Source of the DNA: Diphasiastrum complanatum | Taxonomy: Eukaryota; Streptophyta; Lycopodiopsida; Lycopodiales; Lycopodiaceae | Direction: 5' to 3' | Length of the DNA: 64,000 nucleotides | Assembly (NCBI GenBank): GCA_029204225.1 | Contig: CM055113.1 | Location: 22,329,605-22,393,604, forward strand | Shown: positions 26,340 through 56,380 of the stretch, piece after piece | Position numbering within the stretch: position 1 is the stretch's first letter | How the letters are laid out: the number at the start of each line of letters is the position of its first letter | Program-made: the position numbers and the translations under genes | The notes under the pieces: model-generated | Database searches by the model: none | Seen by the model: the letters and a program-made list of their open reading frames with translations, nothing else | What the model was told of the DNA's origin: nothing

Positions 26340-28905
26340 ATTAACAAAGCAACAACATTTCAATACAGATTACATGCCCTTGAACTTGTGGAGGAGGCCT
26401 AACAAAATCAATACCCCATTTGTGAAAGGCTTCGCTTTCAATTATTGGAGTAAGGAGATTGTGATCATCTTTTTTGGTATTCGTTGCGCGTTGGCAAATG
26501 CCACAAACTTTTACATAAGCGTAAGTGTCTTTGAAGGGTTGGCCACCAATCCAGCCAGAAAAATTACACTAGCAGTAGCATCAGAGGAGAAATGTCCACC
26601 CCTAATACCCTCATGTGTCTAGGCAATAATCTATTAGACTTCAGACTCATGGGTACAGCAATGTGTATACCATCAACACCTAACTTATATAGTTGTCTCG
26701 CAATAAGATGATATGGCAAAGATTTCATAATAAGTTTGATTTTTTGTGGTTTGCTCAACTGAGGATCAATCTCCCTAGTGGCTAGATATCTAGTGATATC
26801 ATCTACCCATAATGGAGTTGCATCTATAAAAAATAGACACGCATCTGGCAACTCACCATTTATTGGCTCATCAAATGCCTCAACATTAGGTAATTGTGAA
26901 AGATAATTAGCCAGAAAATGTTGTGATCCCTTTCGAATAACAACTTGAAAGTTGAATTCTAAAAGAATCAACAACCATTGTGCAATTCATCCAGTTTTGC
27001 AAGGTTTATTCAATAAGTAAAGAAAAGCATGATGGTCGGTATAAAAAACAAACAACTGGTTGAGCAAATAATGTCGAAACCATTGAACAAGATAGACCAT
27101 TGCTAGTGCTTCTTGATCTGTGGTGGAATAATTAACCTCAGTTGGAACAAGATGACGGCTCAAGAAACAGATTGGAAAATCCTTTCCAGATTCTCCGGGT
27201 TGCGTTAAAACAGCACCAATAGCATACTTACTAGCGTCCGTATGCACATGGAACTCCTTAGTATAATCGGGCACACGAAGAATGGGTGCGGTAACTAAAG
27301 CCTATTTAAGATCTTCAAAGGCTTTAATTTTGTCTTTTGTCCACCTTGGGTTGGTAACAATTTGATATACTAACCGTGCTTTATTGGCATAGTGTATTAT
27401 AAAAATTCGATAATAACTTGTGGGGCCTATAAAGATGTAAATTTCTTTCACTGTGTCGGGTAGGGGCATTTCAAGAATGACTCTGATCTTTTCAGGATCA
27501 GTGGCGATACCATTTCGAGAAATAATATGGCCCATGACCACACCATGGGTAACCCAAATTTGGCACTTGTCGGGATTTAATGAAATTTCAAACCTTTGAT
27601 AGCGAATGAAAACTTGTTCAAGGGCATCGAGATGCTTAACTTGAGAGGAATGCACACCAAGATCATCGAGATAAGTCTCTAGATTCTTGTGCAACAGATC
27701 TTTGAAAGCTCGTTGCATCACCCTTTGAAATGTGGATGGGTCATTGCACAGCTCGAATGGCATAACGTTATATGCAAAGGTACCAAACTATATAACAAAA
27801 GCCGTTTTGAAACGATCTTCAGGAGCAATTTGGACTAAGAAATAGCCACTAAAACCATTGAGGAAGCTAAAAGCTTCAGCTCAGAGACAAAGGAAAATGA
27901 TCCTTCTTTGTTTGATCATTAAGTTTCTTCAAATCCACGCAAATATGGAGTTTACCATTCTTCTTTGGCACCACCACAACTGGTGATACCCAACTGGTAT
28001 GCTCAATTTCATTAATGAAACCAGCATCGAGAAGCTTCTGAATATCTTCTCATATCTTCTCGCGATATGTTGGATTGGTGCGATAAGGTTTTGCACAGAC
28101 AGGTAGGGCACCATCCTGCAATGGGATTGTATGGACGACAACGTCAGGAGGAACCCATTTCATCTCTTTATAATTCCATGCAAACACATCTTGGTATTTG
28201 CACAATAACTGTTCCAAGTCCCGTAATTGGGTTGGATTCAAATGGGCTCCTACATGTACAGTACGGTCGATGTCTTCATCATCATCCTTCAAATTAAGAG
28301 GTATGGTCTTTGCAGGTCCTTCAAAAGAAGTAGATGATAGTTGAGGCTCCCGTTTTGGCTTAACCATATGAGTGGTGTAGTTTTTAAAATGTTGGGGAAC
28401 ATCATAAAGTGATCATCAACTACCTCGTGTGCGATCTTAGGAATATCCTCTATAGATTTACTTGTAGATGATGAAGCGTGACTAGGATTTCTGTGATTTT
28501 GAATCAAAGGTTTGATTGGCTGTTTCAGCTTTTCACGCATTTGGAATTGCTTATCAGTAAATCGTACATCAACCCTTGATTTGTTTGTTAGCATGTGGGA
28601 GATTTGTGGATTGGTAATAGTAGGCATGCATGAATGTTTTGGTGTTTTTTCATGAACTAAGTCTTCGTCAATGGTGTTCAAGATTTCATCATTGTTGTGT
28701 ACATCCCATTGATAGACTTTGAGTTTGGGTCGGTATACACGAGTGTGGACTAGTTGTGGATGTTGCACACAAGCCGGAGGTGATGGAAGCTTGATCTCTT
28801 TCGATATACGATGCTTTTCTAAATAGTCGGGATCCAGCAAGTGAATGAGCTGGTCATCAGATAACTCATGTTCTTCCCCAGTAAGAATTTCATCCTCATT
28901 GGTGG
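26340..28905 (-). mobile_element. Decayed Ty3/gypsy retrotransposon pol (RT, RNase H, part of integrase)
   Basis: On the minus strand, in order: the gag-pol linker and a pre-RT domain (DVFAWNYKEMKWVPPDV near 28250), reverse transcriptase with the YLDD active site near 27690, RNase H with HTDAS, QEALA and TDHHA (27274-26990), and the integrase zinc-binding region (CGICQ) and start of the core (GIDFV) near 26400. Gag, protease and the rest of integrase are missing. Frameshifts occur between 28300 and 27770 and inside the integrase. In-frame stops lie before ALVTAP (about 27300) and before IAQWL (about 26990). The right end at 28905 stops abruptly at the CACTA/SET unit. Confidence 0.85.
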
Positions 28906-28909
28906 ATAG

Positions 28910-29467
28910 TTATATGGGACACCATTTTCATATTGGGGTCATATGTACATAATTAAACCTAGTGAGCGTTTTCCAAATGCCGGATTGGGCATATTTTCAT
29001 TGATGATCATTGAAGTTCCCTTGAACAGTGCCATCACATTGATGCCGTACGCATCACCCCAATACAATTGGGGTGATTGGCATGCTTTGTGTCATCACCA
29101 ATCGAAGATGCAAATATATGGTTTGAATGCCAATGCATGTTCATTGGAGGAAAGGCGCATGCAAGGAAAGATAGTTACAAAGGCAAATCATATGTACATT
29201 GATGGATGCCCATATGTACATGGCAACATTGTAGCGTACATCAATAGTTCTATAGGCCACCCTTCTTTAACCAATTGTGATTTTGAGGAACGCACAAATG
29301 GACAAAAAGAGTTTTTTTCTAAAAATGTGAAGGGTACTTATGTGATGGTATGTGTGATTAGAACAATCAAATCTGGAGAGGAGTTATTCATAGAATATAG
29401 TTACAATCGTCCTTTGCCAAGATGTGTACAAGAGGCTTTGAGCCAAACAAATCCATGTACTCGATGA
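28910..29467 (+). CDS. SET-domain protein carried by a CACTA element, copy 1
   Basis: Open frame of about 174 codons from ATG 28943, with homology to copy 2 beginning at about 28910. SET proteins transfer methyl groups from S-adenosylmethionine to lysines, usually in histones. Seen here: N-terminal GLGIFS (the usual GxG-like start of SET), a central insert with many Cys and Met, then YINSSIGHP..TNC (the NHSCxPN position) and SGEELFIEYSY (the GEELxxxY motif with the catalytic Tyr). No post-SET Cys cluster is obvious. The 5' part present in copy 2 is cut away by the gypsy junction at 28905. About 250 bp downstream the CACTA transposase starts on the same strand. That transposase has stops, yet this frame is open. 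Confidence 0.7.
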   Translation, partial: LYGTPFSYWGHMYIIKPSERFPNAGLGIFSLMIIEVPLNSAITLMPYASPQYNWGDWHALCHHQSKMQIYGLNANACSLEERRMQGKIVTKANHMYIDGCPYVHGNIVAYINSSIGHPSLTNCDFEERTNGQKEFFSKNVKGTYVMVCVIRTIKSGEELFIEYSYNRPLPRCVQEALSQTNPCTR

Positions 29468-29689
29468 ATCAAACATATAAATTCTTGAATGGATGGTTTT
29501 TATCTACTTACATATGATGACATTGATTATGTTTAATGTATTCTATTATGATTTGTGTTGAGTGCATTGTTAGATATTGCTAGTTTGTATTAAAATTTCA
29601 AATTTGATGGATGATTTCACTAGATGTTGTCATATAATTAAGCATTTGTTAATTATCATCTAGCTCTAGCGACACCAATAATAGTAGGC

Positions 29690-30908
29690 CATGAGCTAAA
29701 TCCAAAAATAGGATGGCGTACGATGGTCCACATATAAATCAATTGTCTCGTCGACAGTGTAAAGGATTAAGACAAATGATGAAAATTGATGAAAGACAAG
29801 ATCATGATTATGCAAATCGGCCTCAATGTCATCGTAGCTCTTCTAAATCAAGTTAAAGTGCAGACAACGATGCATCTATGCATGATGAAAATGAAATCAT
29901 GGATAATTTAATAAATGATGTATACGAACATCATGATGTGGAAGGATCACACGTTGAAGAAGCTTTTGTGAGTGCCGAGGAGAACATGTTAAGAGAAGAA
30001 ATGAACACACCTCTATACCCTGGAGCAAAGACTTTTGGTTTGGCTACAACGTTGCTTTTATTAAACCTCCAAGCAAAATACAAATGGAGTAACGCAAGTG
30101 TTACATCTTTATTTGGATAAAGATAATTAAAATATTTTCTATCTTGTAATATATTTTGTCTTGCAAGCAAGTTTTGACTGTACATGTACTAAGTAAATTC
30201 ATTTGGTTCTGTACAAATTATTGTGTAAGATACTCCTAGAAGGAAAGACTATGCTAGAGACAAGATCCGAGGCACGTAAGACGTTAAAGTCATTGGAAAT
30301 GGACTACAAATTGCATCATGCATGTCCAAAGGATTGCATCTTGTATCGAGGTGAGTTTCAAGCACTTAGGAGATGTCCGATATATGACACTCCTTGTTAT
30401 AGAGATGGTTTACAAGGGACTATATTCCATGCAAGGTGCTACGACATTTTCCAGTAATTCCACGATTGCAACGAATATTTTGTTGCAAGTCCCTTGCAGA
30501 GCTTATGGATTGGCATGCAAATCATCGTTCTTTAGATGAGATAATGAGAGTTCCCTCATATTCACCTTCATGGAAACACATTGACAAACAATATCCAAGT
30601 TTTGCGGGTGATTCTAGAAATGTGTGATTTGGGCTTGCAACGGACGGGGTGAATCCTTTTTCTGTGAAAGCAAGCACATGGTCTACTTGGCCCGTGGTTT
30701 TGGTGAATTATAACATACCACCTTGGTTGAGCATAAAAAAGGGTCATCTAATGCTAGCACTTCTTATTCCTGGAAAACATATAGTGAAAATATGGATGTT
30801 TACCTTGCACCCTTAATTGAGAAATTAGAAATAATTGATGAACGTATCATAATTTCAAAAGCTAGATTTGAGGAGGAGTTAAAAATTTGCCTATGTTGGC
30901 AAATCTAG
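29690..30908 (+). pseudogene. CACTA (En/Spm) transposase N-terminal half, Transposase_21-like, copy 1
   Basis: First exon about 29700-30118 encodes GPHINQLSRRQ, an acidic middle and LYPGAKTFGLATTLLLLNLQ. The following exon (30203-30830) encodes the tnp2 domain: CPKDCILYRGEF, CPIYDTPCYRDG, PRLQRIFCCKSLAELMDWH, FGLATDGVNPF and NYNIPPWLS. It matches copy 2 (38998-37689) in order. Breaks: a TAA after HRSSSKSS near 29860, a frameshift near 30440, a TGA before FGLATDG near 30626, and a further frameshift near 30780. The sequence departs from copy 2 after about 30830 and the C-terminal domains are missing. Confidence 0.8.
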
Positions 30909-30927
30909 CTATGTCAAATAATGTAAA

Positions 30928-31960
30928 TTATGTACATAAGTGGGCCCCACACATATGAGACCATGGAGAGTTGTATGTCGATCGTGTCAGATCATAACCA
31001 ATTACATCGTCCACGCCTGTCAAAACATCAAAGTTGTACAGAGCTGGTCTTGTAGCATTGCTATCAGTCACATCATGAGCATTGATATCATCTACACTGG
31101 TGAGAATATCTGAACTATACCTAATCCATTTGAAGTTTGTACTATTATTATGATTGATATCTTGCACGCCAGTGAGGAAATCAGAATTATATGTTGTTTT
31201 TGTTGTTCTTGTTGTGATTGAAGGTAGTCGTACATTGCTTATGTGTTGATGATCTATTGTAATTGCGATCATAATAAGTGTAATACTCATTCATTATCTC
31301 GTCAAATGATACGTGCCCAACATTCGTAGCATATAAAGAAAGTTTCGATACACACCATATCATCGATTTATTCGGTGAGTAAAATGGGACTCCATCATCT
31401 GCCATGGCATTTTGAATGGTTTTTTCATTTGTTACCGATATTAACTTTACAGTGGCAAACAACTGATTTTTGTCAAAATTGCAGTAACCTTTGAAGCTAG
31501 CTGAACAAACTATATTTCCATCAAAATCCATACAATCAACAATATCATTGTTGTTATAAATATGACATGCCAAGACTGCAAGATCGTCAATCTTCACCAC
31601 GTCATTGTTATCCCACAATAATCTGTTTGCCATTAAGTCCAAAAATTTATCATAAATGTTTGCAAGATGAGTGATACCCGTCTGTGGGTATGGCAATGGA
31701 CAATCCATCTTGAGCACTTTTGAGATACTCACCATGCATTTATTTGAGCCAATTTTGCGAAAGAAACACATCTGGCTTGGTTGAATGTTCAAAATTTGAC
31801 CGAATGCAACGACTTCTTTTTGATATAGCAAGACAATGCGGACATTTTTCTCACGATCGTTTTCCATTGCAAGCCTTACACACAGAGAGAGAAATTATGA
31901 TGTCAACATACGTTGGAACAAACATACGTACAAATTATGTAGATGTAGATTTATAACACA
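30928..31960 (-). pseudogene. DUF8039-like transposon protein with three degenerate repeats at its C-terminus
   Basis: Main frame 31867-31187. The part IVLLYQKEVVAFGQIL..KCMVSISKVL..CPLPYPQ resembles DUF8039, a domain found next to plant CACTA/PTTA proteins. A single-base frameshift near 31200 leads into a second frame (31290-30928) with three tandem repeats of about 27 residues around the phrases FLTGVQDIN, ILTSVDDIN and VLTGVDDVI. The gene is tail-to-tail with CACTA copy 1, so it may belong to that element or be a separate insertion. The family call is by eye from the pattern only. Confidence 0.45.
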
Positions 31961-32066
31961 CAATGTAAATAGCAGGATAAATATACCCAGGTTTTGAAAT
32001 TGTTTGAAATTATCTCAAAATAGTTTTATGTAATTTAAATATCTTTATAAACTATTAGTGGATATT

Positions 32067-33337
32067 CCTTAGCCTTTCGCCATTGGTCCTTAAAGTTTGG
32101 CCCTTACCCTTTGCCACTTGGTCCTCAACCATTGGACTATAGTCCTTGGCCGTTAGCCCTTACTCCTTAGATCTTGGCACTTAGCCCTTACGTGCCATTG
32201 GTCCTTAAAGTTTGGCCCTTACCCCTTGCCACTTGGTCCCCAACCATTGGACTATAGTCCTTGGCCGTTAGCCCTTACTCTTTAGATCTTGGCACTTAGC
32301 CCTTACGCGCCATTGGTCCTTACCCCTTGCCACTTGGTCCCCAACCATTGGACTATAGTCCTTGGCCGTTACCCCTTACTCATTAGATCTTGGCACTTAG
32401 CCCTTACGCGCCATTGGTCCTTAAAGTTTGGACCTTACCCCTTGCCACTTGGTCCTCAACCATTGGACTATAGTCCATGGCCGTTAGCCCTTACTCCTTA
32501 GATCTTGGCACTTAGCCCTTACGTGCCATTGGTCCTTAAAGTTTGGCCCTTACCCCTTGCCACTTGGTCCTCAACCATTGGACTATAGTCCTTGGCCGTT
32601 AGCCCTTACTCCTTAGATCTTGGCACTTAGCCCTTACATGTCATTGGTCCTTAAAGTTTGGCCCTTACCCCTTGCAGCTTGGTCCTCAACCATTGGACTA
32701 TAGTCCTTGGCCGTTAGCCCTTACTACTTAGATCTTGGCACTTAGCCCTTACGTGCCATTGGTCCTTAAAGTTTGGCCCTTACCCCTTGCAGCTTGGTCC
32801 TCAACCATTAGACTATAGTCCTTGGCTGTTAGCCCTTACTCCTTAGATCTTGGCACTTACCCCTTACGCGCCATTGGTCCTTAAAGCTTGGCCCTTACCC
32901 CTTGCCACTTGGTCCTCAACCATTAGACTATAGTCCTTGGCCGTTAGCCCTTACTCCTTAGATCTTGTCACTTAGCCCTTACGTGCCATTGGTCCTTAAA
33001 GTTTGGCCCTTACCCCTTGCCACTTGGTCCCCAACCATTGGACTATAGTCCTTGGCCGTTAGCCCTTACTCCTTAGATCTTGGCACTTAGCCCTTATGCG
33101 TCATTGGTCCTTAAAATTTGGCCCTGACCCCTTGCCACTTGGTCTTCAACCATTGGACTATAGTCCTTGGCCGTTATCCCTTACTCCTTAGATCTTGGCA
33201 CTTAGCCCTTATGCGCCATTGGTCCTTAGAGTTTGGCCCTTACCCCTTGCCACTTGGTCCTCAACCATTGGACTATAGTCCTTGGCCGTTAGCCCTTACT
33301 CCTTAGATCTTGGCACTTAGCCCTTATGCACCATTTT
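32067..33337. repeat. 115-bp satellite array, 11 units
   Basis: Units start CATTGGTCCTTAAAG at 32081, 32196, 32311, 32412, 32527, 32642, 32757, 32872, 32987, 33102 and 33217. The period is exactly 115 bp except for unit 3, which is 101 bp because 14 bp between two CCTTA repeats are missing. Units are very similar. The unit itself is built of shorter TTGGCC/CCTTAC-like words. The period is not a multiple of three, so open frames across it are not genes. Confidence 0.95.
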
Positions 33338-33339
33338 TC

Positions 33340-33669
33340 TCATATTTAAATTCAAACAATATCTTATTTTTCTCAATTTGCTCCTGATCTAAGTCCACTG
33401 AGTTAAGAATTGTTGACAGTTCACAACCACTTAGATGCATTTTAGAAAAGTCCAAAATGGGTTTGGCAAATAAACAATAAGCTTCATACTATGAATCAAA
33501 ATTTTTCATTACACTAGCAAATGAAATCATCCTAGATGGATGTACATATCTGTCTCCAAATAGTGTAACTACTTCCTTACACTCCTGAAAAGAGAAAATA
33601 TGCTTCTCAAAATCTATATCAGGGGATTTATTAAATAACCACTCATGCCCTAGGATTATGTCCGTACGT
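33340..33669 (-). pseudogene. Coding-like start of an LTR element, unassigned
   Basis: Directly after the primer-binding site, on the minus strand, a frame runs toward the satellite with phrases such as GHEWLFNKSPDIDFEKH and CKEVVTLFGDRYVHPSRM. It has one in-frame stop (about 33498) and is cut at 33337 by the 115-bp array. It might be a gag-like N-terminus; I do not recognise it. Confidence 0.35.
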
Positions 33670-33681
33670 GCTCTGATACCA
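33670..33681 (-). promoter_or_regulatory. Retrotransposon primer-binding site (initiator Met tRNA)
   Basis: Minus strand reads TGGTATCAGAGC, the exact usual plant complement of the initiator methionyl-tRNA 3' end. It lies six bases after a CA-ending LTR on the same strand. Confidence 0.75.
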
Positions 33682-33687
33682 CTATAA

Positions 33688-34151
33688 TGATGACCAAGTG
33701 AAGATCTTCAATAATCTTGTCACATGCAAACCAAAAGAAAACCTGTGGAGTAAAATCACCCATTCAACAAGAAATGGCTTGTCAATACCCTAACCACTTC
33801 ACCCCCAAGCCAAGGTGAATGAATACAAGAGAGGAGGGGATCTTGCTCATAGAATCAAAAATTCCAATTGGGAGATGGGCAAGTTTCCATAGTATATATC
33901 CGCTCCCATAAAGAGAGAATATTTCTCTAAGGATCCCCATGCAACCTAATTAAGCAATTGACCTCCTATTTTTGCATTATAGCAGTCAAACACCATGCAA
34001 GTGCTAGGTCTGGGCCCTCATATGATTATTAATTACTTTTTTGACCAAGCCTGGCATGACGAGGCATAACTAATAACCATATACACTAGAGAAACTAGCT
34101 ATCCATGTCATGAATTATTCCAAATCCCTCATACTGGACATGGACATAACA
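33688..34151 (-). repeat. 5' LTR of an LTR retrotransposon (about 464 bp)
   Basis: Minus strand begins TGTTATGTCCATG and ends GGTCATCA, just before the primer-binding site. It contains a TATATA box (GGATATATACTATGG) about mid-way and a T-rich 3' part, as LTRs do. The outer border at 34151 is tentative because no second LTR was found. Confidence 0.55.
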
Positions 34152-34334
34152 TTTAAAAGCCTTATATTCCTCTACACAAGAAGCGGTTTGGCAATGAGAG
34201 CTACTCAAGGACCAAAACTTGGTTGACCGACCAAAACTTTGACTAGCCATAACTTCTTTACCGTAGCTCAAAATTGGGCATCTTGCATGTCATTGAAAAG
34301 CTCTCATCGAGGGCTTTCTAATGGCACCATAATC

Positions 34335-36035
34335 GTTTTTGGCTATGGTCGTCTGCGGTCGTCTGCGGTCATCTACGGTCATCTACGGTCATCTGCGATC
34401 CTCTGTGGTCCCTCTGTGGTCCTCTACGACCTCTCCGGTCTTTGCGGTCCTTTGCATTCCCTTTGTGGTCCTCTACGACCTCTACGACCTAAACACAACC
34501 TCTGCGGTCCTCTGCGAACTCTACGGTCATCTATAGTCTCTAGTGCATTTCGTCTGTGGTCATCTGCGGTCCTCTCACCGCGGCGGGAAGTTCTGAGGCC
34601 ATCTGTGACCTTTGTGATCATATACGATTCTTTACGGTCATCTAAGACCTCTTCGAGCCTCTACAGTCTCTACGGTCCTCTATGGTCCCTACTGCGGTCT
34701 ATCTATGGTCGTCTGCGGTCATCCTGTCGCGGCGGGAGGTTCTGAGGCCATCTGCGACCTCTACAGTCATATACGGTTCTCTGCGATCATCTATGACCTT
34801 TGCGAGCCTCTGCGATCTGTGCGATCCTCTATGGTTTGTGCGGTCCTTTGCGGTCCCTAGTGCAGTCCGGTTGTGGTCATCTGCGGTCCTCCCACAATGA
34901 CGGGAGATTTTGAGACCATCTGCGACCTCTACGGTCATCTATGGTCATCTGTGGTCCTCTGCGGTCATCTGCCCACACGATTTTAGAGTTTAGGGTCCTC
35001 TACGGTCTCTGATGTGGTCCCTAGTGCGGTCATATACGGTTCTCTATGGTCATCTACGACCTCTGTGAGCCTCTGTGGTCTCTACAGTCCTCTGCGGTCC
35101 TTAGTGCGGTCCGGATGTAGTCATCTGTGATCCTCCCACCGCGGCAGGAGGTTCTGAGCCCATCTGCGACCTCTACGATCATCTACGGTCCTCTATGATC
35201 CTCTACGGTCATCTACGATCCTCTACGGTCCTCTGTGGTCCTTTGAGGTCCTCTACAGTCCTTTGCGGTCCCTCTACAATCTCTCTACGAGCCTCTACGG
35301 TCTCTGCAGTCCTCTGCGGTCCCTAGTGCGGTCAGGTTGTGGCTGTCTGCAGTTATCTGCGGTCATCTGCGATCCTCTGTGGTCACCTGAGCTCCTCTCC
35401 TTTTGCTTCTCTCTCTGCTCTCTACCCTCATGCTTGCTGCTACTTAAACTAGTCTGTAAGAGCCCTAGGAGTATGAAGAACAACTTTATAATATTCATAA
35501 ACGAGATGTTGTGAAGTTGATTTGGGATGGGAGGCAATCACCACCCAAAAGCAATCACCTGTAGAGACCACAGAGCCTCCTCTGCAGTCTCTATAGTCCT
35601 CTGTGGTCAACTACGGTCATTTGCGACCTCTACGGTCTCGACGGTCATCTGCGACCTCCACGGTCCCTACTAGTGAGCTCCATCTGTGGTCCTCTGCAGT
35701 CCTCCCACCGCGGCAGGAGGTGTTGAGGGCATCTATGACCTCTGCAGTCATCTACGGTCATCTACGATCTCTGCGGCCATCTACAGTCATCTGCGACCTC
35801 TACGGTCTAAGCGGTGTTCTACGGTTTGGGGTGCAGTTCATTTGTAGTCCTCTACGATCATTTGCGGTCCTCTGGGGTCCCTAATGCGGTCCGTTTGTGG
35901 TCATCTGCAGTCCTTCCACCGCGACGGGAGGTTTTGAGGCCATCTGGGACCTTTGCGGTCATCTACAGTCATCTACGATCTCTGTGTTCCTCTGCGGTCA
36001 TCTACGATCATCTACGACCTCTGCGGTCTAAGGGG
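34335..36035. repeat. GGTC minisatellite with higher-order hairpin units
   Basis: About 1.7 kb of degenerate words such as CTCTGCGGTC and ATCTACGGTC. Within it, CACCGCGGCGGGAGGTTCTG-like segments recur at about 34577, 34729, 34891, 35135, 35705 and 35913, each followed by GAGGCCATCTGCGACC. The core CCTCCC..CCGCGG..GGGAGG can fold back on itself. A non-repeat insertion lies at about 35400-35560. The array ends within a few bases of the CACTA transposase stop, so it may be that element's subterminal repeat region. Confidence 0.75.
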
Positions 36036-38998
36036 GCAATGGCTCAAGATCATGTGAACTTGAGGCCATGTGTCTACCTCTATTCTGTCGTTGTCGCTTT
36101 CTAAACAAGGCCCTCTTTTTTTTTTCTTCTTCATATAGGTCTAACCATTTATCCATAACTCCATAATTATAAAGCATGAATGTAGAAATTTTTTCTCGTT
36201 GGAAGGGTGCCAACCTATGGACCTTTCCCATCCCTTGAGGTTTTTCACTAGTTACCTCTTCGGCTTCCTCATCACGCCACAATAGTGGAGCAGATGGATG
36301 TAGTTGGTGCAAAATTTCAGTAACATAAAAGAGAGATTCATGTACTAACCATCCCTCTGACATGCTACCTTCAGGCCTTGCCTTTTGACGCACAAAATCT
36401 TTTAAGACTTTCATGTACCTTTCCATAAAGAGCATCCACCTAAAAAGTCACAAATGGTTAAAAATAAGTGTTTTATTTAATGAGTTCATGTATCAATTGA
36501 TTTACTTTAAATACACATGCAAAAGATAATTTATGCACTTATACCTAGTGTGCACTGGACCAGCAATAGAAACTTCTTCAACCAAATGCACCAATAAATG
36601 CACTTGTGAGTCCATGATGAAAGTCAAAAAAATATCTCTCAAACATGCACACAATCTCCACCATATCCTCATGTCTCTTGCGAGGATCCAACTCACGGAT
36701 TTCTTTTGAACACATCCATCTGCAACATAATCAATCCATTTTATGTCTATTTGAATTTCCAATCAATAAATACTAAATAGAAAAATGCACCAAGTACATG
36801 TAAATACCTGACAATGATTGATAGTTTGTATATGGTCTCACAAACATCTTTTGACAAGCACCCACGAATTGACAATGGATAGATGAATTGAATCATCTTT
36901 AGCCAATCATGAGATTTGAGACCTTGCAACTTTCCATCCACTGTGAATGATGACCGTAGAGAATGGGCAAAACCAGTTGGTGTTCTAATGTCATGAATAA
37001 TGGAGCGCACATGGTTAAGCTCCTCCTTAGTGAATGTCGAAGGTACTTTTGGAGCATGATCTTCACCATCCTTTATCCAATATTCTTTTTTGGTGTTTGA
37101 TTCTTTTAGATCGTGTCTTGCAGCAATGGTATCTTTTTCACCAATCAAGTGTTTCCAAATAGATTCACCCACATTTTTAAATATGTGCATGGGATCAAGT
37201 AGGTGATTAATCAAAAGGTTATTCCAATATTCCAAACGATGAAATATAGATAATCTTTTCATACCATCGATTGGCTTTGCTTGAGATTCCTCTCATAGTA
37301 TTCGCCAATCTTTCACGGACATCCTCTTTGGAGGCATCTCTCTCTCAACTCTTCCACTAAAACCTCTTCTACGAGTGTCTCTGAATGGATGGCCTTCGTG
37401 CAAGTATTTACGATGATTTTCATAAACCACTTTTTGGAGACTAAAAGAGTATCTTCCCACAAGATTTGGCCAACATGAAAAATGAGCATTTTTTCCAGCC
37501 GTTTGAAAGCCTGCCAAACAAATGGATACTATCAATCACTATTAAAAAAAGTATATGTCAAAGAATAATTATAGCTATTGTAGTATATCATGTAAATGTC
37601 AAGAATTACTAGTTGTATGTAACTGTAAACAAACTCCTATGTACACAAGATAGACATTGTTTGAATGATTACCTGAGCATTCACCTAATCATGGATAGTC
37701 ATGCATTGTCCACATTACAATGGCATGTAGTGTAAACTCCCTCTCATGTAAGGGGCATGAAATGTCATATGTTTTTATCCCCTTCCACAAATCTTCCAAC
37801 TCGTCAATAAGCGGCTCAAGATACACATCCATGTTCTTAACCTTGTGTTGGCCAGAAATTAAAAGTGCTAACATAATGTGTCTCTTTTTTGTACTCAACC
37901 AAGGAGGAATATTATAATTTACCAAGCAAACAGGCCAAATGGACCACGTAGTTGCTCGTACACCAAAGGGGTTCACACCATCTGTTGCAAGACCAAATTT
38001 CACATTTCTTGACTCATTGGCAAAGCTTGGATACTCTTTGTTGATGTGTTTCCATGCAGGTGAATTTGAAGGTACCCTCATCATCCCATCCGTAGAGGTA
38101 TGCTGTGCATGCCAATCCATAAGTTGTGCAAGAGATTTACAACGAAATAAACGTTGCAATCGTGGAATTACTGGAAAATGTCGTAAAACTTTGCATGGAA
38201 TGGTTGCCCCTTGCAAATCATCTCTATATCGAGGAGTATCACAAATGGGACATTTCTTGAGTGATTCGTGCCTTCTGCGATATAAAATACAATCTTTTGG
38301 ACATGTATGATACTGCTTGTAGTCCATCCCGATGTTAGTCAACATCTTTCGTGCCTCATCTCTTGTCTCAGACATGACATTCCCTTCTGGGAGAATTTTG
38401 CTTTTCAATAGTCTGTACATGACAAAAGAAGTCATTGTAAAAAAAATATCACTCGATGTCCAAATTGTAAATTTTGTTTCAAAGCAAAAATGACAAGCAG
38501 ATGAAAATTTTTTTACTCAAATAATGATGTGAGGCTTTGGTCACTCCATCTATATTTGGCTTGAAGATTTAATAGAAGTAGAGAAGTCACCAAACAAGAT
38601 GTCTTTGCTCTAGGATACAATGCGGTCTTTGATTCTTCTCGCAATTTTCTTTCTTCTTTAGACAAAAGTGCCTCCTCATCTTGTTCATTGTGTCTAGCTG
38701 CAATATTGTTCTCGTACATATCATCCAACATGTCTCCCATAACTTCAAATTCATCATTCATTGGAAGCTCATTTTCATCGTTGGAACTTGTTTGCGAAGA
38801 AGTAGATCTAGATGAGCTAGATTCAGATGCATTAGTCTCTTGATTAATGTGCTTATCAATTTCCATCATCTCTTTTAAGCCTTGACGTAGACGACGAGGT
38901 AATTGCTTTATATGTGGACCGTTGTATTGCATTCGTCGTCTACGTCGACCATTACGAGGATTATTGTCTCCAACACTAAATGAGGATGAAGAATCCTA
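36028..38998 (-). pseudogene. CACTA (En/Spm) transposase, copy 2 (Transposase_21 and DUF4218)
   Basis: Exons on the minus strand: 38998-38513 (GPHIKQLPRRLRQGL, acidic middle, LYPRAKTSCLV), 38435-37689 (tnp2 domain with CPKDCILYRRRH, CPICDTPRYRDD, FGLATDGVNPFGV, YNIPPWLS), 37535-37270, 37262-36800 (LDPMHIFKNVGESIWKHL and the start of DUF4218, GLKSHDWLKM), about 36740-36550 (HLLVHLVEEVSIAGPVHTR) and 36440-36028 (ERYMKVLKDFVRQKARPEGS). The transposase cuts and joins element ends. Unlike copy 3, no DUF4216 domain follows; the frame ends in PLPP at the GGTC minisatellite. A stop after VKDWRIL (about 37293) and some uncertain borders suggest it is inactive, but it is the most complete transposase of the window. 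Confidence 0.85.
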
Positions 38999-39317
38999 TA
39001 TATCAAAATAACAAGAAGTAGGTTGAAACAATGCTTGATAAACATTTCCTCCCAATACTTGATAGATCTAAATGTTGCATATGAATATAAATTGCCTCTT
39101 AGTTTAAAAAGTATGAACATACCAATGTATCTATTAGACAGATTTGTCTTTTCAACTTGTTAACATTCAATGAACTCAAAGACAATTAATGCTCCTAACA
39201 TTTAATCTAGACAAATGACGAATAATGCTCCTAACATTTGACATATTTAATGACACAAACCAAATACAATCAAGATGCATGGATTATACATCTCTACATA
39301 TCAACAAAATTTAAATC

Positions 39318-40060
39318 TCACATTTGACTTATTGTCTTTTGCAAACATTTGGGTAGAGGACGGTTGAAACTATACTTGATGAACAATTCCTCCCCAAACC
39401 TGATAGATCTAGTGGCACAGACCATTACATAAGTGCCCTTTGCATTCCTAGTAAAATATTCTTCTTTTCCATTGGTGCATTCTTCAAAATCACAATTCGT
39501 CAATAGAGGGTGGCCAATGGAACTATTTATATATGCAGCAATGTTTCCATGCACATCTGGACGTCCATCAATGTATGTACGATTTGCCCTTGAGATGTTG
39601 CCTCCTTGCATGCGTTGCTCCTCTAAAGAACAAGCATTTGAATTCAAGCCATATACTTGCATCCTCCATTGGTGACGACACAAAGCATGTGAATCACCCC
39701 AATTGTATTGAGGTCCTGCATATGGCATCAATGTCACAACACTATTTAAAGGGACCTCAATACTACTCAATGCAAAAAGGCCCAAACCAGCCTCAGGAAA
39801 GTGTTCACTAGGCATGATCATGTACATTCGACCCCAATACGTAAATGGTGTTCCATTTAATGGTAATGGTGATTGGAGTGGCCAACACAAATATCTACTT
39901 CTAATAAAAGTTTTACTAATGGTTGCAAGCTAGTTGGAAGAGGAAGGTCAGACAAAGAACCTAGAATGTCTTTTGACACATCAACAGTGCGTAGTAATTT
40001 GCAATTATGTTTCAAACTAGTCATAATACGTCCCAAGATGTGTTCTCTTTTTTGAAGGGG
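39318..40060 (-). CDS. SET-domain protein carried by a CACTA element, copy 2
   Basis: The uninterrupted frame from 39890 to 39318 encodes about 190 residues. Upstream, 40060-39900 holds a further coding-like part (about 50 residues, with LPTSLQPLVKLLLEVDI) in another frame, so a small frameshift or an intron lies near 39895. SET features: EAGLGLFAL, PQYNWGDSHALC, GNIAAYINSSIGHP..TNC and FGEELFIKYSF with the catalytic Tyr. By eye it shares roughly 70% of residues with copy 1, and both stay open. The transposase exon follows about 320 bp downstream on the same strand. A lysine-methyltransferase role is inferred from the family; the substrate is unknown. Confidence 0.7.
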
Positions 40061-41239: not shown

Positions 41240-42012
41240 TTAAAGCATTTTCGAAAAACACTTTAAAGAGTTTACCTCTCGTATTCTTGGATTCTCTGTG
41301 TGCACTCCATTGGCCCAAATATGATCGTTGACAATCCTCCTTGTCCGAATCCTAAGGCCTTTGCATTGTGTGCATGTACATGGTATCCTCTCATCATATT
41401 CTGATTGAAACTGGTCCACAATCCAATTGCAAATTGCACAAATTCTTTTAGTGTCATTCAAGTGAAAATTGACGTATTGTAACATGTGACAAAAATTGAC
41501 AAAATAGTCTTTGTACATTTAGTGCATTTTCAACCTTCATTTGTGATGGAGTGGTGTCTTGGTTTTCCAAAGAGCAAATCGGATTACATCACTATTACAA
41601 ATAAAAAAATTATGACATAAATCAATATACATACATGTGATGGATCAATAGGCGGTCTACGTCGACTGATGGAAGAGCTTGAAGATGAACCAGTCAATAG
41701 TTGTTCATTGTACTTTAGTCTTGATTGCTCCTTTTTTTTGTGATAGAGCTCAATTCTTTTTTCTTTCTCTAAATCACGTGGAGGTACGATAATTTCCCTA
41801 GAATTCATAATTCCAATCAAATGTCATTGTAAGAATAAATTTGCAAGAAAAATTATACACTCATATTCAAATAACAAATAAAGTGCAATTGATGTCAATA
41901 TCAATAACAATATATACCTGCTGTTGCAATCATGAGATGAATCGCTATCTGATGATGATGACATCGTCGATGACATATACACACTGTAGCCAGCTACTCT
42001 ATACCACATCAT
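41240..42012 (-). pseudogene. CACTA-associated N-terminal zinc domain (Transpos_assoc-like) and upstream exons
   Basis: Minus strand, upstream of the SET gene. Two exon-like pieces come first: 41980-41918 (Ser/Asp-rich, donor CAG|GTATATA) and about 41800-41645 (Lys/Glu-rich, then a Ser run and RRRPP). The block 41500-41250 follows, with IPCTCTQCKGLRIRTRRIV and NDHIWANGVHT. The C-x-C-x2-C spacing followed by His resembles the N-terminal zinc-binding domain found in CACTA transposases. An overlapping frame (LKEFVQFAIG) looks like the preceding helix, so a frameshift is likely. It probably forms the first part of CACTA copy 2. Confidence 0.45.
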
Positions 42013-44310: not shown

Positions 44311-44944
44311 AAACCCCACTATCAAAAAGAGCTCATGTACCCTCTTTTGGGTGGGAAGAGGCAACTACCGACAAATCTGAGTCCAATTCAAAAGACTATG
44401 CAGGCTTGACATGATGGATGTATTATTCGTGAACCCACCTAAGGCCACATTGATGAATGAAGAAGTAATGATGCGAGGCTTGTCACTCCCTTGTATGAGC
44501 GTGCACAAATTTATAAATTGTGAGCTTGTCTATTTCTCATAAGCTTGCAAACTAAATAGTGATCGTTGAATGCGAGTGTCACAGAGTTATTCAAGTAAGC
44601 TAGCTTTACCGTTTAATATCACTTTCAACCCAATTTTTGTTTTGTACTTCAAATAATATGTAACACATGCATGCCAATTTAAAAAAAGATGACGTGATAG
44701 TTTTCTTCAAAAAATAATGCCGCCAAATAATACCATGGCTATGTCGATACAAGAAGCCAAAAAAATATAGTCATCGGTTGGCATGAATTATATAAGTACT
44801 CATGCATGTATCAACGATTATGTTCTTTATCAAGACAACTTTGGGGGGGGGGCGACAAGCACATGTCCATGTTGTACCACAAAATGATAATGCTTCTAGA
44901 ATACTATTACATATATGAACTGAATAAATGAGGTATGACTTTGC

Positions 44945-45130
44945 AATTGATGAAAGTTATTGAAGTACCTACAATGGTCCCGTTATCTACCAAATGCACA
45001 ATGGGATGCATATGGATGGTGAGAATCTAATTGGAAAAGTGATTCTCATTGAGGCACATTGTTTTGATTGAGGTTTTCTTTGTCCCCTTGATGGATGCTA
45101 TTGGTATCTCCTTGGATGAAATGTATTTTG
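44945..45130 (-). pseudogene. CACTA transposase fragment (part of DUF4218)
   Basis: Nucleotide match to 55085-55270 of CACTA copy 3: a stretch around CTACCAAATGCACA, CATTTGAATGGTGAGAAT-like phrases and GGATGAAATGTAT at the other end. It carries indels and stops. Around it (44415-44940 and 45130-45860) I see no gene. Confidence 0.55.
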
Positions 45131-45859
45131 TAAGTACATATGCACATCATTCCAAATTCTGTCATTTCATCATATGAATGGTTGTTCTTTTGAGCTGAGA
45201 TTTTTAGTATGATCACCTCACTCCCAAAAGCCAGCCATATGCTATAAGCATATCTTCTAGAGTTTGGTTGACTCTCTAGGTCTGGTCATCTTTCTCAGGA
45301 TGCTAGTATAAGTGCGCTCTCGCCTAAAGTCTGCCACTTTTAACACTTTTCACCCAGTAGGAACTTCACGTTAATTACATCCTGATGCTAAAAACGTCAG
45401 CAAATACTTAATCACACCAATCTCGGATATTCATCCTGTTTCTAGAAATGGTCTCATAACAAAATTCAGGAGAAAGAATAGGCACAGATCAGATGTTTGT
45501 ATACCCTCAAATCTCATCCTGGAGCAATGTACCTAGGTTTTAAGAAAAGAAATAGCAAACCACAAACAAACCAAAGATACAATAAGCAAACAACTAGAAT
45601 GATGTTCCCCGTGCCTATTTAAACAAGACTCGTCTAGCATCAGATCCAAATGTACGATGATCTCAATTGAATCCAATCTTTCCAGCTTTGCACCCTCGTC
45701 ACCTTTATATAGACAAGTGCCGAAGAAAGCATATTGCAGGCTGCTCCAACAAGCTGGGCTGAGGTAGTTCCAGTTATCGTGTGCTCAAATCTTCGCTTCC
45801 AATAAAAGTGAGCTCAGTAATGGCAAAAGAATTAACGCTGCTCGGCGAAGAGACAGACT

Positions 45860-46892
45860 TCAAGCATCGCCTGAGCTTTCTGGACACGGATTTCTCTCTC
45901 CTCCGACCTCGTCGTAGCTGCTAATTAGCTCTGTAAGAGTAGAGCAGCTCTCTGAATGCTGCAGTCTACTGCAACGCTGCGTGCTATCTGCTGCTGGTGC
46001 TTGCAATGAAGAATATGCCTCTATTTTCACACCCAGGGCGTTCCTTAACGATCTCCCAGACCCCCCAAAAGAATAAGATCTCCTCAAATAATTAATGGGA
46101 GTCACCGTCACAGGTAAATTCTTCACAGAAAGCAATGAGGACTTTTCTGGGCTCTCTAGGTCTTGTACTGCCTTTGTGAAAGGTTGTGAATTTCTTGAAA
46201 GAACTTGGGATGTCTCTCTCTCTCCCACTCTCCCTGCTGTCCTGTTTGCATCCCGGACGCAGGTACCAACGGCTTCATTGTTCTCTTCAGAAGCCTCATC
46301 TACTGATACGCACTTCAGCTCGTTCATCCCTTGATGGATTGTCTTCTGAAGATCTCAGTACTGAATCAGAAAACGCTTCTTCTTGCGCAAGAATGATATC
46401 CAATGAGCGATGCTCCTCCGGCATTGAAACGAGGCTTTGCCTGCACAAAGGACAGGTTGAGTGCGAGAAGAGCCACATGTCGATGCAGTCAGGATGGAAA
46501 GAATGGCCGCATTTTGGTAACATCCGAAGGCTTGCATTGTCTTGAAACTCCGTCAGGCATACAGCACACACCATTGCATCTTTGTCTTGCCCCAACCCGT
46601 TCAACACAAAGTAGCTCACAACTGGAAAAGAATTGAGAACGCTCATGTCAAGACCACCGTGAGATGACTCATCATGCTGCGTCATGATTTCTGAACCCCT
46701 CTGTCCAGATCCGTCCACTTCTGCCTCGGAGTAGGAATCACAGTTCTGTATGCAAACTGAGCAGAATCCCGTGAAAACGAAGGCTCCCATGACTACCCAA
46801 GTGAATACGTCCTGGGCCTGAACTGAATGCATGCTAGAATCACTCGACGTAGTAGACAAGGATGGCTGAAAGTCACCCATTCCATTATTCAT
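45860..46892 (-). CDS. ATL-type RING-H2 finger E3 ubiquitin ligase
   Basis: The only clear host gene. No intron, as usual for ATL genes. Frame 46892-46296 (198 residues): a membrane segment near residues 30-48 (VVMGAFVFTGFCSVC), the GLD motif (GGLDMSVLNSFP), then a complete RING-H2: CAVC, 15 residues, CGHSFH, PDC, ten residues, CPLC, with the Trp of ATLs (IDMWLF). Such proteins sit in membranes and pass ubiquitin from an E2 to targets, often in defence or stress. The first frame stops soon after the RING. A second frame, 46327-45860, is protein-like (Ser-rich, with NYLRRSYSFGGSGRSL) and probably the original C-terminal tail, in another frame. So a single-base frameshift, a read error or a true shorter protein must be considered. 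Confidence 0.85.
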
Positions 46893-47630
46893 GGTGGATC
46901 TAGAAGAAACCCACTGTTTACAGGGGTGACGGAAGTGTGCTATTTGCCATATCTCTAACTTTCTTCTACTGCCGGATCAATTAACACCAGAAACTACCCA
47001 AACATCATGAATGTCTCTGCATTGGAGCCACCCATAGTACCATACCAGAATAGTGAGAGCACAAATTATTTGAAAATTCGTGTACCAACCCAGGAGCAAT
47101 AGCATACACCTAAACTAATTACTGATCACCAACAGGATATGTGCCACAAGCTGAATATAATCGGAGCGATTATAAGGTGAGCAGCAGATACCAATGGTAA
47201 GAAGAAAGAAACATTAGAAGCGAAGCTTGAAGAATGACTTTCCTTTGCCATCCATCATTTTATGCATCACTCTCCTCGCTCCAACAACACTAGCTCTCAC
47301 ACACACTCTCTAGAACGTGCCAAATTTCCAATTTCATAACAGAATCCCACGGTGCCAAATTGCCAATCTGGGTGGGAGTATGATCCATGTGGTGACGGTC
47401 GTTTTTGGAAATGGAAAAGAGGGATGACAGGAGCCAGCGAACACAAGAACCCCCATAAAACAAGAACGACGTGCCATAGCGCATTGGTGTTTTAAGATTT
47501 GTAATATTTGACATGACAATCATTAACAATGCATAAACATCATTTTTGGGCTTGCCTTGCAAAGGCAATACTATGTGGTGAGGTCGGTCAATGGAGTTTG
47601 AAAAAAAAGTCAATGTTAAAGGTTGAACGG
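46893..47630. other. Upstream region of the ATL gene
   Basis: About 700 bp without a supported gene. It presumably holds the ATL promoter, but I see no clear TATA box or known element at a fixed distance. Confidence 0.4.
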
Positions 47631-53599: not shown

Positions 53600-55270
53600 C
53601 GTCTCACTCATTCATTTGATGGTTCATCGTTATCATTTGTCGCATCATCCTACGACAAATCTGCCAAACCAAATGAGTCTATCTCTAATTCTACCCAAAT
53701 ATCTCCTATAGCTTCATCATTAATAAGTTGATCTTCAAAAGCTAATGGCAACGGTGATGACGAGTAAGATCATGAAAGTGCGTCGTGTGTCATCGAACCA
53801 TCCGATGATGATGCATCATGCTCAACGTCATCATTAGCTTGTGAGGCTTGCACATGATCATCCTCCAAAATTGTGACATTGAATCCGTCATCACGATCTT
53901 GTTCATGAGGTGCATTACTGGCAGCGCCATGTCCTCCATGACATCTCTATCTTCAAAATTTCTCTATCTTCGAGGAGCACCATCTGGGATCTGAACGATC
54001 GAGGTGAAAGACCACCTACAATCAATCGATGTTACCATAAACGTTGACTCGTAGTTAGTATCCATAGCTATGCTACAGTTTTTTGCGTATTACTATACAC
54101 AATACACATTTTTTGCAATACACTAAAAATCAATTGATTGACAACAAAAGAGCATAGACATCAAAGAAATGTACCTGCTCACATTGTTGTGAAAAAACAA
54201 ACATGTTGCTTTGATCTGTCCAAAGCTTGGTGGAGTCGATGGCAAAATAACCACTCTCATCTTTCTTGACAGTTGCATTGGGACCATTGCAAATAACTTT
54301 GAACCATTTGACATCAAATATGAAAAAGCTGAATTGCCTAGATCCAACTTCGAGGATGTCATTGATTGTCCCACAATAATCAAGTTGAAAAGAGAGTAAA
54401 TTGGTGTCCGTCATGCTTGCTTGACTCTCTTGCATAAAATTTGCCATGACTCCAGAATCGTACATGTTTCTATTTTTGTCAATACGCTCTGTACACAAGT
54501 GTTGTCCATGCATCCACAGTGCATTGTATTTTTTGTACTGAACGAAATGGAACCTAATGTGTTAGGGATACAACAAAATCTACAAAATTTCATGTATTAG
54601 TAAACATGGGAAGGTTGATCATCATAGCTTACATGTAAATTGCACCCCCTTGCATATTCCCGCTCTCTCTCTGTTACTTCCTGGTTGTTTGTCAAGGCTT
54701 CTCTAAGTGCATCCAAGCGTCATGTCCTTGGGTAGAAGGGCGAGGTCAAGTGAGTATGGTTGTCTTCTTTGCCCTCTCCTGAAAGTGGCTTGAGCGGTTT
54801 GTCTATGGGCCTTGGCATCTTCATATAGCGAAATCCACTTTTGCATTTCCTCGCTATTAAGAATGCAAAACTTATTTACCTTCTCCTTGAAGGACTCACT
54901 CATTCTCATGATCACTCCTTTTCCTTGAGGAACCTCCCCAACAACACACTCGTCGTCCTTCTTATCCACAAGATGAGGAAAAGCATCCAATGGCTATGGA
55001 CCGTGCCTGAATTAGAAAAGATAAATCAATGTTAGCGAGGGAACATGGGGATTACCACAATAATAATAGTCTAGGATGGATTAAGAATAGGCAATTGATG
55101 CAAGTAGATGATGTACCTGCAATGGCCACCTCATCTACCAAATGCACATTGAGATGCATTTGAATGGTGAGAATGGATGTGGGAAAGTGCTTCTTGATCA
55201 AACACGCCTCCTCGATGGAGCTTTGTCTTGCCACCTCAATGGATGCCAGCGGTATCTCTTTGGATGAAAT
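53600..55270 (-). pseudogene. CACTA transposase 3' part (DUF4218 end, DUF4216, acidic tail), copy 3
   Basis: Minus strand, in order: 55270-55110 with HLNVHLVDEVAIAG (end of DUF4218), 54990-54700 with QGKGVIMRMSESFKEKV and LNSEEMQKWISLYEDAK (same exon as the end of copy 2), 54513-54170 with DYCGTINDILEVG, FDVKWFKVI and ESGYFAIDSTKLW (DUF4216), and an Asp/Glu-rich tail to about 53600. The first half of the transposase and any SET gene are absent. Stops and shifts are present, so it is inactive. It shows what the missing C-terminus of the family looks like. Confidence 0.75.
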
Positions 55271-56380
55271 GTATCTTTATAAGAAAGAGAAACAACAATG
55301 AAATATGTGTTAGTAAAATCATCATCTTGAATCACCCCAAGAAAAAATGATATGAATCGCAAGCGCATTCACTGTACCTCACCAAACTACTGATTTTGTA
55401 GATTTCACTCCTTAACTCCTTGCATCTCTTTCAAAGAGTAGATATTGATTTTTCCACATTGGCAAGATTGTTAGAGGTGATCTATTTCTAACCAAAGATC
55501 AGGTTATGGATCTAACTTAGGAGATTAAAGTTAAAGAAAATAAATAATAATTACAGTCTGAAATTATCCACAAACTCTAACAAACAATTTATAAAAGGCT
55601 TCCAAATACAACTATCCTTAGAATCTAATTCTAAGATATGAAAATTCATTCAACTAGAATCTCTAGGAGAATTATTAAGATATAGAATGATTAAAACTCA
55701 ACTCTGAGTATCCCAGATACTCTTTTGAGTTAAATGCTCATGTTTCTAGCACCAAATGCAAGAAAATAATATTCATTCATCTTAATAGACTTGTTTGTCT
55801 CCTATAATAGCTGGAGATCCAAGTAAATGAAGACCTGTACTCAAGCATTTGCAGATCATAAACTGTAGTAGAATAGTATTCCACTAGATAAATTAAATTC
55901 CCCACGAGTAAAATATTGATGAATAATGAAGATTGACGATTAGCTTCATGGTTGCTGCTTATGAGATATATATACAAATATCGCTTTGGGATTACATTAT
56001 CAAGTCATTGGACTGGTCGTTGTATGACAGTACACCGTAGATCAGGATAGAGACTAATGCACTTGCTTGAAGTGCCTTGTTAGAGGCCATCGACGAAGTG
56101 TGCCCACCGAAGGCGGTCGAGTGATGGTGTGTGTGTGTGTGTGTGTACTTATCTTGTGAGAATGTCTGTGAGATCCATAGGTTCTCAATAATATTGGAGT
56201 AAAGAGATTCAAAACACTGATCTAAATTCTTACTCAATTAACAGACCAAGACTTAATCGTCACACTTAAGAATCATTACAATTCTTTACAATCCTCTGAC
56301 AACAATTAAGTATCTATTTACGAGCCGTCAACCGTAAATATTTTGATTCGTATGATTCGTCAATCATAATTTCACAACAA
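55271..56380. other. AT-rich region without recognised genes; short (GT)n at 56126-56146
   Basis: About 1.1 kb with no supported gene, containing a 21-bp GT run. It may include LTR remains, but no ends were identified. Confidence 0.5.

What the first reader, a model, noticed from the sequence alone, without database searches (positions are those of the whole stretch)
28910..40060. A CACTA transposon family that carries its own SET-domain gene
Two diverged CACTA copies (28.9-30.9 kb plus, 36.0-42.0 kb minus) both have a SET-domain gene 250-320 bp upstream of the transposase, on the same strand. The two SET frames differ by roughly 30% of residues, yet both remain open and keep the YINSS..NC and GEELF.. 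motifs, while the transposase of copy 1 has several stops. A stable, selected SET cargo could let the element write histone marks that help it escape or use host silencing. Capture of a SET gene by a CACTA family is not something I know as established.
Basis: partly seen in the sequence, partly recalled or inferred. Interest (0 to 1): 0.85.

Follow-up and report, generated by a model that had tools for sequence, protein, structure and literature searches.

The report
SET domain inside CACTA transposase genes
Two decayed copies of a plant CACTA jumping gene both carry a piece resembling histone-marking enzymes inside or beside their transposase gene, and a liverwort has predicted genes of a similar layout, so this looks like an old working part of the element and not a chance neighbour.

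Summary
Both tnp2-type (CACTA/EnSpm) copies carry a SET reading frame just before the tnp2 part. The frames are 72% identical over 179 residues, with dN/dS 0.12-0.19 by method; dS is similar to that of the adjacent transposase, so both diverged together under purifying selection.

Corrections: in copy 2 SET lies inside the transposase gene, with a Transpos_assoc match upstream (41.24-41.52 kb; E 4e-5, below Pfam's cut-off) and the tnp2 exons downstream. Copy 2 is broken too. No terminal inverted repeats were found.

The key new evidence is from the liverwort Riccia sorocarpa. Predicted protein P0055 holds the C-terminal part of SET, then tnp2, and matches both window copies colinearly. P0029 holds the SET N-terminal half before tnp2. 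These are 2 of the 120 tnp2 hits listed; neither holds a whole SET. Two fern-side relatives whose models reach upstream lack SET.

SET genes in other DNA transposons are in print (HarbingerS and MuDR of Phytophthora; PMC12730594). New here is SET within a CACTA transposase gene of land plants. Enzyme function is unproven. The host genome could not be searched.

The parts
41243..41518 (-). Copy 2: Transpos_assoc (PF13963) N-terminal part of the tnp2 transposase; a GT donor-like site follows near 41.27 kb (by eye)
   Evidence: E 4e-5, 24.1 bits, cut-off 27.7; translation; sequence
39899..40027 (-). Copy 2: N-terminal extension of the SET protein, in another frame than the SET ORF (relative to P0001)
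   Evidence: P0001 residues 1-43 match, 34/43 identical
39321..39929 (-). Copy 2: SET-domain ORF (203 aa)
   Evidence: PF00856 E 6.5e-7; P0001 89%
39021..39070 (-). Copy 2: 50-bp relic of a second SET 3' end in the SET-to-linker spacer, 86% identical
38516..38995 (-). Copy 2: acidic linker exon of the transposase (NGPHIKQL...LYPRAK); acceptor-like TATAG just before it (by eye)
   Evidence: (46% to copy 1)
37692..38423 (-). Copy 2: tnp2 catalytic core, first part
   Evidence: PF02992 E 1.1e-49
36750..37517 (-). Copy 2: tnp2 core continued, with an in-frame stop near 37.29 kb
   Evidence: PF02992 E 1.8e-8 for 37293-37535
36031..36762 (-). Copy 2: DUF4218 C-terminal part in two pieces
   Evidence: PF13960 E 2.7e-7 and 3.8e-10
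34347..36028 (+). GC-rich array of about 10-bp units (CATCTRCGGTC-like) directly abutting the 3' end of copy 2; possibly a subterminal region, unproven
28910..29464 (+). Copy 1: SET-domain ORF (185 aa), 5' end missing
   Evidence: PF00856 E 4.6e-6
29695..30114 (+). Copy 1: transposase linker (YDGPHINQL...LYPGAK), with an in-frame stop
30155..30813 (+). Copy 1: truncated tnp2 core with a frame change and an in-frame stop

Best explanation
The window holds two dead copies of a CACTA/EnSpm family in which a SET domain is a built-in part of the transposase gene, in the order Transpos_assoc - SET - acidic linker - tnp2 core - DUF4218. SHOWN: this order (copy 2), SET before linker and tnp2 (copy 1), SET sequence before tnp2 in two Riccia sorocarpa protein models, and past purifying selection on SET at the same depth as on the transposase. 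INFERRED: splicing of one primary transcript yields a SET-tnp2 chain, or a Transpos_assoc-SET protein plus a separate tnp2 protein. The SET part is thus brought to element DNA or to the transposition complex, where it methylates histones (or a non-histone partner) and keeps the element's own chromatin expressible, or steers integration. I put about 0.8 on the anatomy and selection, and about 0.35 on local methylation that counters silencing.
For: Pfam SET in both copies and in P0001. Co-divergence: SET dN 0.157/dS 1.26, tnp2 dN 0.172/dS 1.14 (NG86). Transpos_assoc match upstream of SET. P0055 (Riccia, 773 aa) carries SET 197-293 (below cut-off) and tnp2 484-657, aligns to the copy 2 SET at 38/131 identity, E 1e-12, and hits SET then tnp2 in order in both copies. 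P0055 scores 32.8 bits with a profile of the four window-type SETs against 19.5 with generic Pfam SET. P0029 (Riccia) carries the SET N-half before tnp2. The Asn of 'YIN' and the Tyr of 'ELFxxY' are invariant in the four window-type SETs and P0055.
Against: Neither Riccia model holds a whole SET domain, P0029 has no Pfam SET match, and both are gene predictions whose DNA I did not see. Copy 2 has a stop right after 'ISQM', and P0001 and P0002 end at the same place, which suggests a separate SET protein. The canonical His of the NHxC motif is Ser or Cys here, so catalysis is doubtful. AF2 models failed (pLDDT 30 and 36). Two relatives, P0007 and P0008, have an upstream part and no SET. No element ends were found. 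The Transpos_assoc part is seen in copy 2 only.
Confidence: 0.6

Rival explanations
1. SET is a separate accessory gene of the element (its own start and stop) that lies in an intron of, or between exons of, the transposase transcription unit, as a diffusible anti-silencing factor.
For: The frame ends right after SQM in copy 2 and P0001, SQV in P0002; a methionine is shared at the start of the downstream linker (MQYNGPHIKQL / MAYDGPHINQL), possibly a second start; P0001 is annotated as a gene of its own, 232 aa.
Against: P0055 and P0029 models run SET sequence and tnp2 in one chain; copy 1's frame runs six codons past 'SQ' before its stop; in copy 2 a GTGAG donor-like sequence coincides with the SET stop (by eye); no start codon was mapped in the window copies.
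Confidence: 0.35
2. The SET domain is no longer an enzyme; it serves as a protein- or chromatin-binding module of the transposase that guides complex assembly or target choice.
For: The His of NHxC is Ser in both window copies, P0002 and P0055, Cys in P0001; the Cys after the second Asn is lost in P0055.
Against: The glycine motif 'GLGxF' is kept in both window copies, P0001 and P0029; the YIN Asn and the C-terminal Tyr are kept in the four window-type SETs and P0055; past selection was strong.
Confidence: 0.3
3. SET was captured independently in the lycophyte and liverwort lineages.
For: On the best tree P0007 and P0008, which lack SET, lie between the window copies and the Riccia rows; one gain plus one loss and two gains then need equally many changes.
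Against: Same position in the gene; Riccia SET fits the window-type profile better than generic Pfam SET; shared unusual 'YIN-S-[ST]-x-G'; with only rows of known state compared, one SET clade is not rejected (AU p 0.073). I lowered this from 0.2 to 0.15 after that test replaced an uninformative one.
Confidence: 0.15
4. Chance: a host SET gene or pseudogene beside unrelated transposase fragments, or one recent duplication of such a pair.
For: Both copies are decayed and element ends are not found.
Against: Two copies diverged at dS about 1, same order and strand; the same order in Riccia.
Confidence: 0.03

Closest known systems
HarbingerS and MuDR DNA transposons of Phytophthora with SET histone methyltransferase genes (Kojima and Jurka 2014, cited in PMC12730594; I read PMC12730594's introduction and passages, not the 2014 reports)
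   Same: A DNA transposon carries a SET gene.
   Different: Other transposase superfamilies, oomycete hosts; here tnp2 (CACTA/EnSpm), land plants, SET within the transposase gene. The 2014 reports were not seen, so the position of SET there is not compared.
Fungal EnSpm, Plavaka and other DNA transposons with a TET/JBP dioxygenase (PMC12730594; introduction and passages read)
   Same: CACTA-group elements carrying a chromatin-modifying enzyme; its author proposes escape from methylation-based silencing (abstract passage).
   Different: A DNA-methylation eraser, not SET; fungi.
Plant CACTA (En/Spm) tnp2 elements
   Same: Transpos_assoc, tnp2 core and DUF4218, the domains that other plant tnp2 proteins list (here).
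   Different: None of the other 118 listed tnp2 hits matches the window-type SET profile with E below 3. Many are fragments that do not reach upstream; of 92 rows outside the group of 28 relatives, 23 have 200 or more residues upstream of the core.
Vandal (MuDR) anti-silencing factors of Arabidopsis (PMC12730594's introduction and reference list; the name VANC is recalled)
   Same: A transposon protein acting on the element's own silencing, which is the hypothesis here.
   Different: VANC is not a SET protein (recalled); the silencing role here is untested.
ATXR5/ATXR6 plant SET proteins
   Same: The only SET proteins among the 5 PDB sequences that the window-type SET profile reached up to E 10, best E 0.37.
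   Different: No significant similarity; a lead only.

Membership tests
CACTA/EnSpm | tnp2 transposase core (Transposase_21) | tested here: met
   Copy 2 E 1.1e-49; copy 1 by homology to copy 2
CACTA/EnSpm | DUF4218 in plant tnp2 genes | tested here: met
   Copy 2, two pieces, both above cut-off; copy 1 is truncated before it
CACTA/EnSpm | Transpos_assoc in plant tnp2 genes | tested here: inconclusive
   Copy 2 E 4e-5, but 24.1 bits against a cut-off of 27.7; missing 5' part in copy 1
CACTA/EnSpm | CACTA/CAC terminal inverted repeats and 3-bp target site duplication | tested here: inconclusive
   No pair with at least 9 of 13 matches and a 3-bp duplication in the ranges scanned; copies are decayed or truncated
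CACTA/EnSpm | Subterminal short repeats at both ends | tested here: inconclusive
   10-bp array abuts the 3' end only, almost all in one orientation
SET-domain protein | Pfam SET above curated cut-off | tested here: met
   27.4, 30.2 and 33.0 bits against 22.4 for copy 1, copy 2 and P0001; P0055 19.5, below it, and P0029 no match
SET-domain protein | Catalytic and cofactor residues (Asn and His of NHxC, C-terminal Tyr; roles recalled) | tested here: inconclusive
   Asn and Tyr kept, His replaced by Ser or Cys; no structure model of use
SET-domain protein | Histone lysine methyltransferase activity | not testable with these tools
   Needs a bench assay
HarbingerS / MuDR with SET | Harbinger or MuDR transposase | tested here: not met
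   The transposase is tnp2; no Harbinger or MuDR family among the Pfam matches of the ORFs scanned

The most novel reading that the evidence does not exclude
A CACTA clade of non-seed land plants has carried a SET domain inside its transposase gene since before liverworts and vascular plants split. The transposase, or a splice form of it, writes a histone mark on the element's own chromatin, coupling transposition to control of silencing in one gene.
Probability: 0.35. Interest if true: 0.82.

Novelty: new variant of a known kind. Interest (0 to 1): 0.62.

Why it matters
If right, it adds CACTA elements of non-seed land plants to the transposons that carry a histone methyltransferase-like protein, and places that domain inside the transposase gene. 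That makes a clear question testable in liverworts, where transformation is routine in Marchantia (recalled): does a transposon write its own chromatin state? It also warns annotators that gene models such as O6H91_01G035400 (P0001) and R1sor_002856 (P0055) are probably transposon parts.

Tried and rejected
Terminal repeats: scanned CAC..GTG pairs for both copies; the best hits had no target duplication and look like chance. CACTA-motif scans were at chance level. Structure: AF2 with 4 and then 5 sequences gave pLDDT 30 and 36, so no fold search was made. PDB by sequence: nothing up to E 1 with one sequence; the profile gave ATXR5/6 at E 0.37, not used as evidence. A match of P0001 to an NCBIfam model of a bacterial effector (E 0.016, 14 bits against a cut-off of 550) is generic SET similarity and was set aside. 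Longer proteins (about 350-1,100 aa) with the SET part as query: 154 candidates, none at E 0.001. P0055 and P0029 are in that length range and were not reported, so that negative is weak. Viral contigs: 189 stretches matched a pattern, none a relative. My first clade test (four SET rows against 75, AU p 5.9e-37) is uninformative, since the 75 held close sisters of unknown SET state (P0014, P0054). Redone: with those sisters joined to the SET rows, against all 73 others (most of unknown state), p 0.0013; against the 21 rows that reach upstream and lack SET, p 0.073. Considered and dropped: the 34.3-36.0 kb array as a proven subterminal region.

Literature searches without a CACTA-SET report among their listings. 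PMC8616336 came up with both words; its passages on them concern host-transposase fusion factors, Pack-CACTA and reference titles, not SET in CACTA. Searches (Diphasiastrum; Riccia) were listings only. Open-licence papers only were searched; the Repbase Reports of 2014 were not seen.
Full report
WHAT IS THERE. The window is from a plant, most likely a clubmoss: the best protein match of the copy-2 SET ORF is P0001, 'hypothetical protein O6H91_01G035400 [Diphasiastrum complanatum]', 89% identical over 98% (Lycopodiaceae). The species is inferred, since the match is not exact and the host genome could not be searched. Two copies of a tnp2-type transposon lie in opposite orientation. Copy 1 (+): SET 28910-29464, linker 29695-30114, tnp2 core 30155-30813. 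Copy 2 (-): Transpos_assoc 41518-41243, SET 39929-39321, linker 38995-38516, tnp2 38423-36750, DUF4218 36762-36031. Pfam SET scores are 27.4 and 30.2 bits (cut-off 22.4) and tnp2 168.9 bits; Transpos_assoc has E 4e-5 but is below its cut-off.

POSITION OF SET. Copy 2 shows it is inside: the N-terminal Transpos_assoc part lies 1.3 kb further upstream on the same strand, separated from SET by sequence with two GA-repeat runs, and a donor-like site follows it (by eye). Copy 1 lacks its 5' end from about 28.91 kb (P0001 matches it only from residue 57); reverse transcriptase and RNase H frames lie on that side at 26987-27787. Its Transpos_assoc part cannot be seen.

STATE OF THE COPIES. Both are dead. 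Copy 1 has an in-frame stop in the linker, a frame change at 30418/30424 and an in-frame stop in the core. Copy 2 has in-frame stops and a frame change in tnp2, and the SET reading frame changes upstream relative to P0001. P0001 itself lacks four residues at the 'INSSIGHPLL' motif, so it too is probably a decayed copy annotated as a gene.

SELECTION. Over 179 codons SET has dN 0.157 and dS 1.26 (NG86), 0.151 and 1.12 (ML), or 0.159 and 0.84 (LWL85), so dN/dS is 0.12, 0.13 or 0.19. Over a 130-codon tnp2 stretch dN is 0.172 and dS 1.14 (NG86), or 0.152 and 1.25 (ML); stop codons were skipped, YN00 failed for both, and dS near 1 is close to saturation. Differences by codon position are 27/28/72 for SET and 28/16/54 for tnp2 (one-sided binomial p 5.6e-8 and 7.7e-6). 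In 5000 neutral simulations with 127 changes, the SET frame stays stop-free in 0.94%, and the fewest amino-acid changes is 65 against 51 observed. The similar dS suggests that SET was already there in the common ancestor of both copies, and excludes a recent segmental duplication.

RELATIVES. A search for SET relatives gave 2 of 106 candidates at E 0.001: P0001 and a fragment P0002 from an unnamed source. A search with the SET part in longer proteins gave 0 of 154. A transposase search gave 327 hits among 7,989 scored candidates, of which 120 are listed. Scanning the 122 proteins held with the profile of the four window-type SETs gave, besides P0001 and P0002, two matches of note: P0055 (32.8 bits, E 3.2e-10) and P0029 (18.1 bits, E 1e-5), that is 2 of 120 tnp2 hits; the other rows reported had E of 3.2 or more. 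Both are Riccia sorocarpa, a liverwort. P0055 (R1sor_002856, named 'SET domain-containing protein' by UniRef) has SET at 197-293 (E 0.0013, below cut-off, profile positions 36-104) and tnp2 at 484-657. It aligns to copy 2 SET at 38/131 identity, E 1e-12 (hhalign probability 95%), and on the window it hits SET and then tnp2, in order, in both copies. P0029 (R1sor_021033) has no Pfam SET match but carries the N-terminal SET half (BLASTP E 2e-6; hhalign E 1e-4, probability 57%; tblastn E 3.8e-4 and 5.2e-4 on copies 1 and 2), before tnp2. So neither model holds a whole SET; each holds the half that the other lacks. A third listed Riccia protein, P0014, starts at the linker. After SET, P0055 continues with 'RGPHFSQLSRR', like 'NGPHIKQLPRR' in copy 2 (by eye).

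DISTRIBUTION. The tree used 79 of 122 core rows: the two window copies, P0003-P0068, and every row of P0069-P0122 whose number divides by five. It puts the window copies, the Adiantum rows and the Riccia rows in a 30-row group (support 100/98) apart from 49 others. Of the 28 non-window rows of that group, few models reach upstream of the linker. P0055 and P0029 have SET sequence; P0007 (Adiantum) and P0008 (unnamed) have an upstream part, in P0008 a weak Transpos_assoc (E 3e-4), and no SET. P0011 and P0060 (Adiantum) also reach upstream, but into what looks like unrelated sequence. So SET is not universal in the group. My first test of SET rows as one clade counted close sisters of unknown state as lacking SET and says nothing. 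Redone: joining those sisters to the SET rows against all 73 others, p 0.0013, where most of the 73 are of unknown state; against the 21 rows that reach upstream without SET, p 0.073, not rejected. On the best tree, one gain with a loss on the fern side and two gains need equally many changes; the shared position and the specific SET kinship lean to one gain. Horizontal transfer is open.

HOW IT MAY WORK. The anatomy suggests one transcription unit with a SET module between the N-terminal domain and the catalytic core. Whether SET is joined to tnp2, joined to Transpos_assoc, or made alone is unsettled: SET ends right after 'SQM' or 'SQV' in copy 2, P0001 and P0002, and six codons after 'SQ' in copy 1, but a GTGAG donor-like sequence sits at that point in copy 2 (by eye), and the Riccia models read on. 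Residues: the glycine motif is kept where that half is present, as are the Asn of YIN and the C-terminal Tyr; the His that follows Asn in canonical SET proteins (recalled) is Ser, or Cys in P0001. Activity is open. I favour local histone methylation that keeps the element expressible, at about 0.35, with a non-enzymatic module close behind.

KNOWN OR NEW. PMC12730594 (introduction read; [quoted passage not shown] My searches (listings) and passages of PMC8616336 showed no report of SET in CACTA elements; they cover open-licence papers only. I therefore file it as a new variant of a known kind.

LIMITS.

Noticed in passing
window 32079-33326: Tandem array of a 115-bp unit, 11 copies, 93% matches, between the two transposon copies.
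   Followed up: no
window 34347-36028: GC-rich array of degenerate 10-bp units abutting the 3' end of copy 2; with up to one mismatch its two motifs occur in the window only at 34-36 kb, all on + but one.
   Followed up: partly
window 39021-39070: A 50-bp, 86% identical relic of the SET 3' end in the spacer between SET and linker of copy 2, a sign of an earlier tandem or nested duplication.
   Followed up: partly
window 54624-55430 (-) and 44488-45134: Fragments of other tnp2 transposases; the 55-kb piece is nearest P0005 (69% over 59 aa), which lies in the fern-side part of the tree. No significant SET match near either.
   Followed up: partly
window 26987-27787 (-): Reverse transcriptase and RNase H frames of a retroelement on the side of copy 1's missing 5' end.
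   Followed up: partly
window 46296-46976 (-): RING-H2 finger ORF (PF13639 E 7.4e-13), probably a host gene.
   Followed up: no
window 31187-31894 (-): Open 235-aa frame without a Pfam match just after copy 1.
   Followed up: no
P0060 (Adiantum nelumboides): Gene model joins a glycosyl hydrolase 79 N-terminal piece to a tnp2 core, probably an annotation artefact or insertion.
   Followed up: no
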